DNA from: Halolamina pelagica
GTDB taxonomy: Archaea > Halobacteriota > Halobacteria > Halobacteriales > Haloferacaceae
Direction: 5' to 3'
NCBI RefSeq assembly: GCF_900115675.1
Contig: NZ_FOXI01000001.1
Coordinates: 124,001-188,000 of the forward strand
DNA: 64,000 bases
Shown here: positions 7,437-13,778 of the stretch, piece after piece
How positions within the stretch are numbered: the first letter of the stretch is position 1
Layout: each line of letters opens with the position of its first letter
Notes under the pieces: generated by a model
Databases searched by the model: none
What the model was told of the DNA's origin: nothing
Seen by the model: only the letters and a program-made list of their open reading frames with translations
Translations under genes and position numbers: made by a program

Positions 7437-8285
7437 ATGCTCAGGCCGAAATCCACCGCCAGGAAGACACCGACGTGGCCGACGCCGACGCCCGAACAGG
7501 TGGAAGTCGTGCTCCTCGGGACCTACCACATGAACAACCCGGGGAACGACGCCGTCAATATCACCGCCGACGACGTGCTCGGCGAGAAGCGACAGGGCGA
7601 GATCGAGGCGTTCGTCTCGCGTCTGGAACAGGCCGACCCGGATCGCGTCGTTGTCGAGCGCCCCGCCTCGGCGACGAACGCTATCAACGAGGTGTACGAG
7701 CGCTACCGGACGGGAGAAGTCGACTACGACGAGGACCGCACGTTCGAGATGGAGCACGAGACGGAACTGGCGTCCCGAAACGAAGTCGTCCAGGTCGGGT
7801 TCAGGCTCGCCGACCGTCACGATCACGAGAGAGTCGTCCCCGTCGACGTACCCGAGGACCTCAGCGACGACCCGGCGTTCGAAGCGTTCGCAGATGACGG
7901 CCCGCCGGCACCGAAACGAGACGTGCCCCGGATCGACGAGGAAACGCTTCAGGAATCAATGGACGAGCGACTGGCCGAGTCGACCGTCGGCAGCTACCAC
8001 CGGTTCCTGAACGAGGAGGCCGCGCTCCACTACAACGACGGGATGTTCGACGAACTCCTCCGGTTCGGCGAGGGAACCAACTACGCCGGTCCGGACGCCC
8101 TCGCCCGCTGGTACCGGCGGAACCTCCGGATGGCCCACAACGTCTGGCAGGCCCTCGACGATACCACCGAGCGAGTTCTGTTCTTGGTTGGCTCCGGCCA
8201 CGTACACGTTCTCCGGCACCTGTTCACGGAGTTCCCACAGTTCTGTCCCGCCAGTCCGCTTCCGTATCTCCCTCGCAGGGAGTAG
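7437..8285 (+). CDS. DUF5694/TraB-like protein of unknown function
   Basis: A 282-residue soluble protein. It begins with a strand and motif VVLLGTYHMNNPG (about residues 23-35) and ends with a FLVGSGHVHVLRHLF motif (about 253-267). The paired GTYHM and GSGHVH motifs are the hallmark of the DUF5694 group, distant relatives of TraB/GumN-type proteins in which conserved His and Glu are suspected to bind metal; no activity is established. The N-terminal 20 residues are Thr/Pro/Lys-rich and could be unstructured. The start at 7437 is set by the TATA box at 7402-7411. Its base composition is slightly less GC-biased at the start of the gene than its neighbours. Family assignment is from the motifs alone. 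Confidence 0.7.
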   Translation: MLRPKSTARKTPTWPTPTPEQVEVVLLGTYHMNNPGNDAVNITADDVLGEKRQGEIEAFVSRLEQADPDRVVVERPASATNAINEVYERYRTGEVDYDEDRTFEMEHETELASRNEVVQVGFRLADRHDHERVVPVDVPEDLSDDPAFEAFADDGPPAPKRDVPRIDEETLQESMDERLAESTVGSYHRFLNEEAALHYNDGMFDELLRFGEGTNYAGPDALARWYRRNLRMAHNVWQALDDTTERVLFLVGSGHVHVLRHLFTEFPQFCPASPLPYLPRRE

Positions 8286-8337: not shown

Positions 8338-10485
8338 ATGGAGCCGAAACGCGAACTGTCGAGCGTCGACCTCGCGGCGCTCGCGACCGAGCTCTCCCGC
8401 TACGAGGGAGCCAAGCTGGACAAGGCGTATCTCTACGACGAGGACCTCCTGCGGCTCAAACTCCGTGACTTCGACCGCGGTCGGATCGAACTCCTAATCG
8501 AGGTGGGCGAGAACAAACAGGCCCACGTCGCCGACCCATCGCGCGTGCCCGACGCGCCCGGGCGACCGCCGGAGTTCGCCATGATGCTGCGGGGCCGCAT
8601 CGAGAGCGCCGATCTGGTGTCGGTCGAGCAGTACGAGTTCGACCGCATCCTCGTCTTCGAGTTCGAGCGCCCCGACCAGAACACCACGCTCGTGGTCGAA
8701 CTGTTCGGCGACGGCAACGTCGCCGTCCTCGACGGCAACGGCGAGGTCGTGCGCTCGCTGGAGACGGTGCGGCTAAAGTCCCGTACCGTCGCGCCGGGGA
8801 GCCAGTACGAGTTTCCAAAGTCCCGACTCAACCCGCTCGAAGTCGACTACGACACGCTGGAAGCCCGGATGGAGCAGTCCGACACCGACGTGGTGCGGAC
8901 CATCGCGACCCAGCTGAATCTGGGTGGGTTCTGGGGCGAGGAACTCTGTCGCCGCGCCGGCGTCGAGAAGGCGATGGACATCGGCGACGCCGGCGAGGAG
9001 GAGTACCGCGCGATCCACCGCGAACTGATGGATCTGGCGGACGCGCTGCGGAGCGGCGACTTCGACCCGCGAGTGTACGTCGAACTCGACGAGGACGGCG
9101 ACGACGACGCGGACCGCCCGCTGACCGAACGCGGCCGGGTCGTCGACGTGAGTCCGGTGCGGCTGGAGGAGCGGTCCGACCTCCCCAGCCGGGCGTTCGA
9201 CTCGTTCAACCCCGCGCTGGAGGAGTACTTCTACCGCCTGAAGGAGCAGGCCCAGCGCGAGGACGAGGGCGGCGGCCGGCAGCGGCCGGACTTCGAGGCC
9301 GAGATCGAGAAGGAGAAACGCATCATCGAACAGCAGGAGCAGGCGATCGAGGGGTTCGAGGAGGAGGCAGAGCGGCTCCGCCGGAAGGCCGAGATCTGCT
9401 ATGCCCGCTACGACCTGCTCGACGAGGTGCTCTCGACGATCCAGGACGCCCGCGAACAGAACACCCCGTGGGCCGACATCCAGGAGACGCTCGAGAAGGG
9501 CGCCGAACGGGGGATCCCCGCCGCCGAGGCCGTCGTCGACGTCGACGGCGCCGAGGGGACCGTGACCGTCGACGTCGACGACGAGCGCGTCACGCTCGAC
9601 GCCACCACGGGCGTCGAGAAGAACGCCGACCGCCTGTATCAGGAGGCGAAACGCGTCGAGGGGAAGAAGGAGGGCGCCCGCGAGGCCATCGAGGACACCC
9701 GCGAGCGGCTCGAAGCCGTCGAGCGACGCCGCGAGGAGTGGGAGGAAGAGCCCGAACCGGAGCCCGAGGAGGAGCCGGAGGAGCGAGAGGAGACCGACTG
9801 GCTCGGTCGGGAGAGCATCCCCCTCCGCCAGCCCGAGCACTGGTTCGAGGAGTTCCGGTGGTTCCACACCAGCGACGGCTACCTCGTCATCGGCGGGCGT
9901 AACGCCGACCAGAACGAGGCGCTCGTGAAGAAGTACCTCAACAAGCACGACCGCTTCTTCCACACGCAGGCCCACGGCGGCCCCGTCACAATCCTCAAGG
10001 CCAGCGGGCCATCGGAACCGGCCAGCGCCGTCGACTGGCCCGAGTCGAGCCTCGAGGAAGCCGCCCAGTTCGCGGTCGCGTACTCCTCGGTCTGGAAGGA
10101 CGGCCGCGGCGCCGGCGACGCCTACATGGTCGAACCGGCCCAGGTGAGCAAGACGCCAGAGTCCGGCGAGTACCTCGAGAAGGGCGGCTTCGCGATCCGG
10201 GGCGACCGGGAGTACTTCCGCGATATGGCCTGCCGGGTCGCGGTGGGGATCACCTGCGACGACGAGACCCGCGTCATCGGCGGCCCGCCCTCGGCGATCG
10301 AACCGGACGCGGCGACGACGATCACGCTCGAACCCGGGAAGTTCGCCCAGAACGACGCCGCCGTCAAGTGCTACCGGGAGTTCAAGTCCCGGTTCACCGA
10401 CGAGTCGTTCGTTCGCAAGGTCGCGAGCGCGGACAAGATCCAGGAGTTCCTGCCGCCGGGCGGGAGCGACCTGCTGGACACGTAG
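8338..10485 (+). CDS. rqcH: Ribosome quality control factor RqcH (NEMF/Rqc2/NFACT family)
   Basis: RqcH binds obstructed large ribosomal subunits carrying a peptidyl-tRNA and recruits tRNA-Ala to add C-terminal Ala tails that mark the stalled peptide for degradation. The 715-residue protein shows NFACT-N (about 1-200) with the conserved Asp102-Arg103 in EFDRILVFEFE needed for tailing, a helical middle, a long Glu/Arg-rich coiled coil (about 300-495) and NFACT-R (about 500-640) with GGRNADQNEALVKKYLNKHD. The start is the ATG at 8338, preceded by a good Shine-Dalgarno (gggaggt, 8324-8330); the frame is open to 8188 but that part overlaps the previous gene. mptE converges from the other strand with only seven bases between the stops. 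Pelota, another rescue factor, lies 2.2 kb downstream. Confidence 0.93.
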   Translation: MEPKRELSSVDLAALATELSRYEGAKLDKAYLYDEDLLRLKLRDFDRGRIELLIEVGENKQAHVADPSRVPDAPGRPPEFAMMLRGRIESADLVSVEQYEFDRILVFEFERPDQNTTLVVELFGDGNVAVLDGNGEVVRSLETVRLKSRTVAPGSQYEFPKSRLNPLEVDYDTLEARMEQSDTDVVRTIATQLNLGGFWGEELCRRAGVEKAMDIGDAGEEEYRAIHRELMDLADALRSGDFDPRVYVELDEDGDDDADRPLTERGRVVDVSPVRLEERSDLPSRAFDSFNPALEEYFYRLKEQAQREDEGGGRQRPDFEAEIEKEKRIIEQQEQAIEGFEEEAERLRRKAEICYARYDLLDEVLSTIQDAREQNTPWADIQETLEKGAERGIPAAEAVVDVDGAEGTVTVDVDDERVTLDATTGVEKNADRLYQEAKRVEGKKEGAREAIEDTRERLEAVERRREEWEEEPEPEPEEEPEEREETDWLGRESIPLRQPEHWFEEFRWFHTSDGYLVIGGRNADQNEALVKKYLNKHDRFFHTQAHGGPVTILKASGPSEPASAVDWPESSLEEAAQFAVAYSSVWKDGRGAGDAYMVEPAQVSKTPESGEYLEKGGFAIRGDREYFRDMACRVAVGITCDDETRVIGGPPSAIEPDAATTITLEPGKFAQNDAAVKCYREFKSRFTDESFVRKVASADKIQEFLPPGGSDLLDT

Positions 10486-10492
10486 GCCGCGG

Positions 10493-11185
10493 CTACCCCT
10501 CGTCCACCGTCGGCAGCGTCAGTCCGTCGCGCCGACCGTCGAGCACCGAGAACCGATCCGCACGGCGCGTTTCGAGCCAGTAGAGCAACTGCTCCGCCCA
10601 GCGAAGTTTCTTCGCCTTCAGGTCGCTCACGGCCGGATCGTCGAACGACCAGCCGACGAACGTGAGCTCGGCCGCCCCGAGCGCGTCGGCGAGGAACGCG
10701 GCGCGGTCGCCGTCGGTGAAGCCGCCGAAGTTCCGGACCGGGCCGGCGGGGGCGGCCTGCGTCGTCGGCAACAGTTGGTCGCCGGCGAACTCCGGCACCC
10801 AGCGCTCCAGGGCGTCGACGTTGTCGCCGTGAGCGTGGACCGCCACCGGGAGCCCCTCGTGGCTCGCGGTCGCGAGTCGCGCCGGCGTGCCGTCGAGATC
10901 CGTTACCGCGAGTGTAACCTCGACGCCGGCGTCCCGCAGCGTCGTCGCGGCCGAGGACGCGGCGACCACGTCGTCGGCAGCCGCGGCCGCGTCGGCCTCG
11001 TCGGCGAGGGTCGGGCCGGCGCCGGCGACGGCGACGGTGGCGCCGGCGAACTCGGGGAGGGAGTCGAGGTCGAACGGCTCGCTCATCGCGGCGAGTCGGT
11101 CGCGGGCACGCTCGTCGCCGGCGCGGTCGAAGCCGAAGTCGGCGAGGATGCGCTCGTAGACGGGCTCCCAGACGTGGAACTCCAT
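10493..11185 (-). CDS. mptE: 6-hydroxymethyl-7,8-dihydropterin pyrophosphokinase MptE-like
   Basis: MptE (DUF115 family) transfers diphosphate from ATP to 6-hydroxymethyl-7,8-dihydropterin in archaeal folate or methanopterin synthesis; haloarchaea use tetrahydrofolate. The 230-residue protein has the expected length. It contains the AVAGAGPTL loop (about residues 52-60), a VTDLDGTP motif (about 93-101), AVHAHGDN (about 113-120) and the FGGFTDGDRA segment (about 150-160), all typical of the family. A C-terminal LKAKKLRWAEQLLYWLE helix fits too. The minus-strand ATG at 11183-11185 is the only sensible start. It is divergent from the 405-residue nuclease-fold gene across 208 bases and converges with rqcH. 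Confidence 0.85.
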   Translation of the reverse strand: MEFHVWEPVYERILADFGFDRAGDERARDRLAAMSEPFDLDSLPEFAGATVAVAGAGPTLADEADAAAAADDVVAASSAATTLRDAGVEVTLAVTDLDGTPARLATASHEGLPVAVHAHGDNVDALERWVPEFAGDQLLPTTQAAPAGPVRNFGGFTDGDRAAFLADALGAAELTFVGWSFDDPAVSDLKAKKLRWAEQLLYWLETRRADRFSVLDGRRDGLTLPTVDEG

Positions 11186-11303
11186 GGGGGATAGCCGTGG
11201 CTGGCGGACGTGAATACTGCGGAGATGAATGGGCCGGCGTGGTACCGAAGTACCCCTACCCAGGTACCGTACCGGCGTCCACCTGAGCGTTTTCTCGGAT
11301 CCG

Positions 11304-11311
11304 GTATAAGC
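11304..11311 (+). promoter_or_regulatory. TATA box in the mptE / 11394 divergent spacer
   Basis: The box ggtataag stands out in the 208-base spacer between mptE and the gene at 11394. It would start a transcript about 58 bases before that ATG. A second weaker T/A patch (ccttgatt, about 11363-11370) is at leaderless distance. The spacer also holds repeated ggtacc and gtacc words at about 11239-11270. Confidence 0.4.
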
Positions 11312-11393
11312 TTTCTTGTCGCATCCGGCGACGGCGGGCCCACGGCGTCACTCGCTGCGTAACCTTGATTGACTGGCTGGGAGTGGGTAGCGT

Positions 11394-12611
11394 ATGAACC
11401 TCTACCGGACCAGCGAGTCGGGACTCGTGGCAGTCGAGCCGCTCGATCACGGGGCGACGACGGGGCTCGCCGCCGCGCTCCTCCGGGGCCCCGGCGGCGC
11501 ACTCGGCGCCGATGACGTGCTGTTCGTGACTACCGCCGTCGACGACGGGAAGGCGACCGCGATCGGGCTCGACGCGGCGGGCGACGCCGTCGTCGTCGGC
11601 GCCGCCGACGGCGAAGTGGGCAGCGCCGTCGTGACCGACGCGCTCCAGCGTGCCAGCGCGGTCGCCGACGGGTCCTACGACGCGCTCGATGAGCGCTACG
11701 AGGGCGACTCCCTGCGCGAGGCCCACGCCGACTACTTCGACCGCGAACCGCTCGCCCCCGACGCGTTCAACGGCGACCAGCGCGTTCGCCTCGTCGGCCC
11801 GGCGTTCGCCGGCGACGCGATCGACCTGGCGCGGTTCCTGAGCGACCGCGAGGTGCCGGTCCGCCCCGTCCGCGTCGAGGCGTTCGGCGCGCCGACCACC
11901 GACGAGTTCCTCGTCCGGTTCGCGTCGGTGGACGGCGACGATAGGGCCGAGGCGGACGTCGAGGGCGACGCCGTCGACGACGACGGCGACCAGTGGGTCG
12001 CCGGCACGGACGCGGCCGGCTCGTCGTCGACAGCCACCGCCGCGAGCGACGACGGAACGGTCGAGGGCGCGGACGACGCCGATGCGAGCGCCGGCCCGGA
12101 GAGCGGCGAGGCGGCGCTCGCGGACGCGGACGGGCCGACGGGTGAGGACGGCCGGGGGGACGACTCGGACGCAAACGAGCCGTTGGAGCTCCCGGTGCTG
12201 CTGGAGGCGGTCTCCGAGGGCGTCCAGGATCGGCTGGTCGGCACGTTCGACGCCGACCCCGAAGACCTCGTCTCGATCGAGCGCGGGAGCGAACTGCTCG
12301 TCCGCCCCGATCACCCCGCCTACGCCGGCGGCGTCCTCCGGTACCGGCTGCGGGTCGAGTCCGACGGCACCGTCGAGTTCGCGGTGAACATCTACGGCGG
12401 GAGCGAGGCCGAGAAGGAGCAGATGCGCGCGCTGATCCGGGACCACGAGACGGCGATCGAGTCGGAACTGGACTACGAGGTGGCCGAGGGCTACGACGGG
12501 TTCCACGGCACTCGCGAGTTCGCCAGCTACGACCAGGTGGCGGCCGCCGAGATCGTCGACGAGTTCGACCGGCTCGTCCGCTTCCTCAACCCCCGCGTGA
12601 TGCGGGCCTGA
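11394..12611 (+). CDS. Nuclease-fold (DUF91/NucS-like plus DUF4268-like) protein lacking nuclease residues
   Basis: A 405-residue protein with two domains joined by an Asp/Ala/Ser-rich linker (about 185-262). The N-terminal part reads like the PD-(D/E)XK proteins of the DUF91/NucS group: an AIGLDAAGDAVVVG strand pair, a VVTDALQRASAV helix (family: ALDYAS), a DYFDREPLAPDAFN segment, then VRLVGPAF and FLSDREVPVRPVRVEAF, matching the usual LVAxxF and WLxxxGVxIxxVxxxxF. The catalytic Asp and the Glu-x-Lys are not there; the position of IELK reads VVGAA. The C-terminal 120 residues resemble DUF4268 (VEFAVNIYG, then EQMRALIRDHETAIESEL). This assignment is my pattern reading and needs a profile search. 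Placed between mptE and pelota, it may belong with translation or RNA metabolism, but this is not shown. Confidence 0.6.
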   Translation: MNLYRTSESGLVAVEPLDHGATTGLAAALLRGPGGALGADDVLFVTTAVDDGKATAIGLDAAGDAVVVGAADGEVGSAVVTDALQRASAVADGSYDALDERYEGDSLREAHADYFDREPLAPDAFNGDQRVRLVGPAFAGDAIDLARFLSDREVPVRPVRVEAFGAPTTDEFLVRFASVDGDDRAEADVEGDAVDDDGDQWVAGTDAAGSSSTATAASDDGTVEGADDADASAGPESGEAALADADGPTGEDGRGDDSDANEPLELPVLLEAVSEGVQDRLVGTFDADPEDLVSIERGSELLVRPDHPAYAGGVLRYRLRVESDGTVEFAVNIYGGSEAEKEQMRALIRDHETAIESELDYEVAEGYDGFHGTREFASYDQVAAAEIVDEFDRLVRFLNPRVMRA

Positions 12612-12707: not shown

Positions 12708-13778
12708 ATGCGAATCGTCCAGCGCGGTCACGGCGCGGAGGGTCGTGACCGGGTGACGCTCGTCCCCGAGACCGTCGACGACCTCTGGCACCTCTCGCAC
12801 GTCCTGGAACCCGGCGACGTGGTCGAGGGCGACACGACACGCCGGATCCAGCGCAACGACGACCAGATGCGCGACACCGGCGGCGAGCGCGAACACCTCC
12901 ACGTCACCCTCGAGGTCGAGGACGTGGAGTTCGCCCGCTTCGCCAACCGGCTCCGGGTCGGCGGCGTGATCGAGGACTGCTCGATGGAGGACCAGATCGG
13001 GCTCCACCACACGATCAACGTCGAGACCCACGAGGAACTCACCATCGAGAAGTTCCTCAAGCCGGACCAGCGCGACCGGATCGAGGAGGCCGCCGAGGCC
13101 ACCGACGCGCCGGACGTGGCCATCGCGACCGTCGAGGAGGGGGAAGCGTACGTCCACACGGTCCAGCAGTACGGCACCGACGAGTACGTCTCGCTGACGG
13201 CGCCGACCGGGAAGGGCGAGTACGCCCAGCCCCGGACCCGGCTGTTCGAGGAGCTCGGCTCGGCCCTCCAGCACGTCGACGCCGAAGCGATCATCATGGC
13301 CGGCCCGGGGTTCACCAAGCGCGACGCGCTGGACTACCTGAGCGAGGAGTACCCCGACGTGGCCGAGAAGGTCACGACCACCGTCGACACGTCGGCGGCC
13401 GGCGATCGCGGCGTCCACGAGGTGCTCAAACGCGGCGCCGTCGAGGAGGTCCAGGACCAGACCCGGATCGCCCGCGAGAGCGAACTCATCGACGAACTCA
13501 CCGAGCGTATGGCGACGGGCGAGCAGGCCACCTACGGCGTCGAGGAGACCGCCGAGGCGGCCGAGTTCGGCGCCGTCGAGACGCTGCTCGTCGTCGACGA
13601 TCGCCTGCGGACCGAGCGCCAGGACGAGGGGGACTGGGACCGCGACGCGAACGAGATCATCGAGACCGTCGAGCAGAAGGGCGGCGACGTGGTGGTGTTC
13701 TCCTCGGAGTTCGCGCCCGGCGAACAGCTCTCGAACCTGGGCGGCGTCGCCGCGCTACTTCGCTACCGGATCCAGTAG
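12708..13778 (+). CDS. pelA: mRNA surveillance protein pelota
   Basis: Archaeal pelota (Dom34) enters the A site of stalled ribosomes with aEF1A and, with ABCE1, splits them; it resembles release factor eRF1 but lacks the GGQ loop. The 356-residue length is standard. The N-terminal Sm-like domain starts MRIVQRG and includes [16 protein letters not shown]; the central domain contains [17 protein letters not shown]; the C-terminal domain ends in [19 protein letters not shown] and ALLRY, all family signatures. The ATG at 12708 is preferred to the upstream GTG at 12681 because it gives the canonical MRIV start. The gene lies 96 bases after the nuclease-fold gene and 68 before the penicillin-acylase-like gene, which has its own promoter box. 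Confidence 0.95.

What the first reader, a model, noticed from the sequence alone, without database searches (positions are those of the whole stretch)
11394..12611. Nuclease-fold protein without nuclease residues between mptE and pelota
The protein reads like DUF91/NucS plus DUF4268, with the AxxYAS-type helix, the LVAxxF strand and the hreeIE-type helix in order, but without the Asp and Glu-x-Lys of the active site. It sits between RqcH/MptE and pelota. Inactive PD-(D/E)XK proteins could bind RNA or DNA ends, so a role in ribosome rescue or RNA quality control is possible. That link is only positional.
Basis: partly seen in the sequence, partly recalled or inferred. Interest (0 to 1): 0.6.

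Follow-up and report, generated by a model that had tools for sequence, protein, structure and literature searches.

The report
Dead defence nuclease fixed in Halolamina
Every examined species of one genus of salt-loving archaea carries, next to a ribosome-rescue gene, a protein descended from a suspected virus-fighting DNA-cutting enzyme that has lost all of its cutting residues yet is still kept by natural selection, so it was probably re-employed for a new, non-cutting job.

Summary
The 405-aa ORF at 11394-12611 (X) is a full-length relative of NucS/DUF91-like PD-(D/E)XK nucleases (PADLOC PDC-S11, 'phage defence candidate') with the catalytic Asp, Glu, Lys and Gln all replaced. A profile built only from intact relatives finds it at E 1.6e-23; no other ORF of the window comes near. 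It is in 7 of 7 Halolamina genomes, always in the order rqcH - mptE(-) - X - pelA. All 7 lack the catalytic set; all 64 other relatives examined keep the D...E-x-K motif. The loss is one event on a very long stem branch. Both folded domains have since been under purifying selection (omega about 0.28); the acidic linker between them is nearly unconstrained. The old active-site loop changed from net basic to net acidic. The ribosome-rescue link stays positional: rqcH-pelA is an old haloarchaeal pair and X a late guest in it. Best reading: a defence-type nuclease domesticated in the Halolamina ancestor as a non-cleaving binding or adaptor protein. New variant of a known kind; partner unknown.

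The parts
11394..12611 (+). X: 405-aa catalytically dead PDC-S11 / NucS-like protein
11394..11921 (+). N-terminal PD-(D/E)XK-like domain (residues 1-176)
   Evidence: hhalign to intact relatives: probability 99.5, E 1.6e-22; omega 0.29
11547..11669 (+). former active-site strand-loop-helix (residues 52-92): D55 to T, E69 to G, K71 to A, Q82 to D; acidic D72 and E74 invariant in the genus
   Evidence: omega 0.24
11922..12176 (+). acidic, length-variable linker (residues 177-261)
   Evidence: omega 0.83, 4% invariant positions
12177..12608 (+). C-terminal domain (residues 262-405), shared with intact nucleases L018/L019/L026 and with PDDEXK_4 proteins L131-L133
   Evidence: modelled at pLDDT 78, alpha+beta
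11301..11320 (+). TATA-like block CCGGTATAAGCTTTCTTGTC upstream of X, 15 bases of it identical in 7/7 Halolamina; presumed own promoter of X
10493..11185 (-). mptE-like gene (PF01973), divergent neighbour
8338..10485 (+). rqcH (NF041120)
12708..13778 (+). pelA / pelota, 46-96 bp downstream of X in the seven genomes

Best explanation
X descends from an intact haloarchaeal PDC-S11 nuclease (NucS-like PD-(D/E)XK domain plus a C-terminal accessory domain) that settled between mptE and pelA in the ancestor of Halolamina. It lost its whole catalytic set in one episode, changed fast, and then became a fixed, selected gene. Shown: homology of both domains, loss of all catalytic residues in every Halolamina protein, a single clade, synteny, purifying selection on both domains. 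Inferred: that it no longer cuts nucleic acid, and that it works by binding, most likely protein-protein, using the C-terminal domain and the rebuilt acidic face of the N-domain as contact surfaces joined by a flexible acidic linker. In short, a domesticated defence-type nuclease turned adaptor or regulator. Its partner is not known.
For: Profile of intact relatives matches X at 79 bits against at most 13 for shuffles; PDC-S11 hit; both domains matched by hhalign. D, E, K and Q are kept in 51 of 51 aligned relatives and the D...E-x-K motif in 13 further ones, 9 of them from viral contigs; all are lost in 7 of 7 Halolamina. Tree: Halolamina one clade (100/100), stem 2.45 changes per site, nested with intact haloarchaeal PDC-S11 proteins (100/98). 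omega 0.29 (N), 0.28 (C), 0.24 (old active-site segment), 0.83 (linker). Intact relatives lie beside type I and type IIG restriction genes and helicases, typical defence-island company. X has a conserved TATA-like upstream block and is at one locus in 7 of 7 genomes.
Against: No experiment and no named partner. omega is pairwise Nei-Gojobori in a GC-rich genome, so only roughly right. X has about 8 times the dN of pelA, so the constraint is moderate. The N-domain was modelled at low confidence, so the geometry of the old pocket was not seen. Composition of the Halolamina rows differs from the rest of the tree, so its exact position and stem length are approximate.
Confidence: 0.6

Rival explanations
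1. X works in ribosome rescue or RNA quality control with pelota and RqcH, for instance by binding the ends of stalled mRNA or a rescue factor.
For: Always directly upstream of pelA on the same strand, 46-96 bp away, in 7/7 Halolamina; rqcH and pelA are an old linked pair, same strand within 5 kb in 38 of 53 non-Halolamina genomes (my count from coordinates).
Against: No such protein in other genera, which have RqcH and pelota without it. Other genomes have unrelated genes in the same gap. The former nucleic-acid face has turned acidic. pelA is conserved far more strongly (omega 0.09) than X (0.39).
Confidence: 0.12
2. X is a dominant-negative or immunity protein: it pairs with, or competes with, active PDC-S11/NucS-like nucleases brought in by mobile elements.
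For: Full-length dead homologue of nucleases that occur in mobile islands and viral contigs; NucS itself is dimeric (own knowledge).
Against: No close active copy in the Halolamina genomes (one match each); a long stem branch and a rebuilt surface are not what one expects of a decoy that must still resemble its target.
Confidence: 0.1
3. X is still an enzyme with a re-sited catalytic centre built on D60, D72 and E74.
For: These acidic residues are invariant in the seven Halolamina proteins and the segment is the most constrained of the protein (omega 0.24). Residue migration is known in the PD-(D/E)XK superfamily (own knowledge).
Against: No lysine is left in the segment; D60 is common to intact relatives too, so it is not a new feature.
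Confidence: 0.06
4. X is a dead gene in slow decay that merely has not yet broken.
For: Fastest-evolving of the four genes compared at the locus; found in one genus only.
Against: Intact in 7/7 genomes without a stop or frameshift; omega 0.28 on both domains against 0.83 in the linker; conserved promoter-like block.
Confidence: 0.06

Closest known systems
PDC-S11 (PADLOC 'phage defence candidate' S11)
   Same: N-domain homologous over residues 57-190 in direct hmmscan (E 5.5e-7) and over 1-180 by profile comparison; same two-domain layout as intact haloarchaeal members
   Different: all catalytic residues gone; fixed position in the genus instead of a defence island
Endonuclease NucS/EndoMS (PF01939, DUF91; PDB 2VLD, 5GKE)
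   Same: PD-(D/E)XK core; intact relatives of X hit PF01939 and NucS profiles
   Different: X has no catalytic residues and does not itself reach any Pfam model; its nuclease-like domain is N-terminal, not C-terminal; true NucS is encoded elsewhere in the same genome
DUF4268 (PF14088)
   Same: also a C-terminal partner of PDC-S11-type nuclease domains (L017)
   Different: the C-terminal domain of X does not match it by sequence profile
C-terminal module of L018/L019/L026 and of PDDEXK_4 proteins L131-L133
   Same: matches the C-terminal domain of X
   Different: in those loci it accompanies a nuclease domain whose motif residues are present

Membership tests
PDC-S11 / NucS-like PD-(D/E)XK family (by descent) | sequence homology over the nuclease domain | tested here: met
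PDC-S11 / NucS-like PD-(D/E)XK family (as an active nuclease) | catalytic Asp, Glu-x-Lys and Gln | tested here: not met
   0 of 7 Halolamina, 51 of 51 aligned relatives
PDC-S11 as a defence system | location in defence or mobile islands | tested here: not met
   X is at one fixed locus in 7/7 genomes; intact relatives do lie in such islands
NucS (EndoMS) | PF01939 match above the curated cut-off | tested here: not met
   no Pfam match for X
DUF4268 | PF14088 match of the C-terminal domain | tested here: not met
   no Pfam match; hhalign probability 5%
PD-(D/E)XK fold | alpha-beta-beta-beta-alpha-beta core in a reliable model | tested here: inconclusive
   secondary-structure order fits, but pLDDT about 30 in the N-domain with 4 sequences
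ribosome rescue factor | association with ribosome, pelota or RqcH | not testable with these tools
   only gene order available
YbjN / type III chaperone-like or MotA-like fold (C-domain) | structural match clearly above background | tested here: inconclusive
   Z 7-9 against several unrelated folds, within the stated background

The most novel reading that the evidence does not exclude
A phage-defence-type nuclease was captured into the ribosome-rescue locus of one archaeal genus and, after losing catalysis, became a working regulator or adaptor of pelota/RqcH-dependent rescue: defence-to-housekeeping exaptation.
Probability: 0.1. Interest if true: 0.75.

Novelty: new variant of a known kind. 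Interest (0 to 1): 0.4.

Why it matters
It is a clear case of a defence-type nuclease becoming a fixed non-catalytic gene: one loss of the whole active site, a long fast branch, then constraint. That makes it a clean system for asking what a dead nuclease is kept for. It also gives PDC-S11, for which I found no functional test, a natural catalytic-null relative to compare with.

Tried and rejected
Pfam, NCBIfam and PDB sequence searches with X alone: no match. Chance similarity from acidic, GC-rich composition: rejected by the shuffle and whole-window controls. DUF4268: rejected by profile comparison. A divergent homologue between rqcH and pelA in other genera: the genes there read as DUF4013-like membrane proteins and others, by inspection. 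Viral contigs and plasmids for X itself: nothing. Fold search with the C-domain: Z 7-9 to MotA, type III chaperones, YbjN, CapZ and Arp2/3 parts, no clear winner, so no conclusion drawn. The weak G352 C-terminal match has a stop inside and lies in what reads as a CinA-like gene: chance. No paper on this protein was found.

Full report
1. What is there. The ORF at 11394-12611 (+) is 405 codons long, has an in-frame stop just upstream of its ATG, and has the codon bias of its neighbours (GC3 0.94). Neighbours: rqcH at 8338-10485 (+), an MptE-like gene at 10493-11185 (-), pelota at 12708-13778 (+), then a penicillin-acylase family gene. The genus is Halolamina (one search returns H. rubra, H. pelagica and H. 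salifodinae as matching named genomes).

2. The nuclease relationship. X alone matches nothing in Pfam, NCBIfam or the PDB. Searching 60 relatives found it in all seven Halolamina genomes and, at 33% identity, in one other genus, where the protein has an intact NucS-like motif FDILAIDELGNTVVVELKR...QALEYAS. Profile searches of 392 genomes of the order and 393 of the phylum brought in many more intact relatives. These hit NucS_C (PF01939) and NucS models, and the joint profile hits P. abyssi NucS 2VLD. PADLOC names the family PDC-S11; X itself is hit at E 5.5e-7. PDC stands for 'phage defence candidate' (PMC11514479); I found no functional test of PDC-S11. The clean control: a profile of six intact relatives finds X at 79 bits in the window, next ORF 6 bits, best of 2,000 shuffles 13 bits.

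3. The lost active site. In the family alignment the Asp, Glu, Lys and the motif-helix Gln are each invariant in 51 of 51 relatives and absent in all seven Halolamina proteins. Thirteen more relatives, nine from viral contigs, also keep the D...E-x-K motif. The following loop, mostly basic in relatives (R/K at 72, 74 and 77), carries D72, E74 and S77 in all seven; net charge of residues 66-82 is -2 to -4 in Halolamina against 0 to +3 in intact haloarchaeal members.

4. The C-terminal domain. It matches the C-terminal domain of intact L018/L019/L026 (probability 96.7) and not DUF4268 (5%), whereas another intact relative, L017, does carry DUF4268 (97.8). The same module follows a different, PDDEXK_4-type nuclease domain in 318-320-aa proteins L131-L133. 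AlphaFold2 gives an alpha+beta domain at pLDDT 78, with no clear structural neighbour.

5. History and selection. The Halolamina proteins form one clade (100/100) on a stem of 2.45 changes per site inside the haloarchaeal PDC-S11 group (100/98) (long branch and skewed composition, so the position is approximate). Within the genus, mean omega is 0.29 for the N-domain, 0.28 for the C-domain and 0.83 for the linker; for comparison pelA 0.09, rqcH 0.14, mptE 0.22. Both folded domains are therefore still selected although the catalytic residues are gone. A TATA-like block upstream of X is near-identical in all seven.

6. Location. The order rqcH-mptE(-)-X-pelA is kept in 7/7 Halolamina, with X 46-96 bp from pelA. 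In other genomes rqcH and pelA are often close on one strand: by my count of the coordinates, within 5 kb in 38 of 53, in five of them 42-117 bp apart. Genes found between them elsewhere read as DUF4013-like membrane proteins and others. X is a late arrival in an old pair. Among 170 genomes of the family, the only other full matches (G010, G227, G715, G726, G776) have intact motifs.

7. Reading. Intact relatives sit in defence-type company: type I restriction genes (L081), type IIG enzymes (L080, L082), a DISARM/BREX-like helicase (L079). X left that setting, lost catalysis once, and was kept. The most economical function is non-cleaving binding; the acidic rebuild makes protein a likelier partner than nucleic acid. 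That last step is inference. The ribosome-rescue idea is possible but rests on gene order alone.

Noticed in passing
coordinates; e.g. L068, L074: rqcH and pelA are close neighbours on one strand across haloarchaea (38 of 53 non-Halolamina genomes within 5 kb, five of them under 120 bp apart): a ribosome-rescue gene pair that I did not find described in the papers searched.
   Followed up: partly
L131 1521-2474, L132 1483-2442, L133 1459-2418: The C-terminal domain of X also follows a PDDEXK_4-type nuclease domain, so it looks like a shared, unnamed partner module of haloarchaeal nucleases.
   Followed up: partly
window 11186-11393: The mptE-X intergenic region holds long blocks near-identical in seven species, including GGTACCGAAGTACCCCTACCCAGGTACCGTACC with GGTACC repeats; possibly a regulator site or divergent promoter.
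   Followed up: no
L064-L074, between rqcH and pelA: DUF4013-like membrane proteins, often two or three in a row, lie upstream of pelA in other genera.
   Followed up: no
L058 around 7325-7882 (G002): mptE of the H. pelagica genome matches in two pieces, which suggests a frameshift or a sequencing error.
   Followed up: no
L135 1437-2480 (own genome, contig C13): The window's genome also carries an intact NucS-like nuclease of another subfamily, nearly identical to copies in two other genera, which suggests recent transfer.
   Followed up: no
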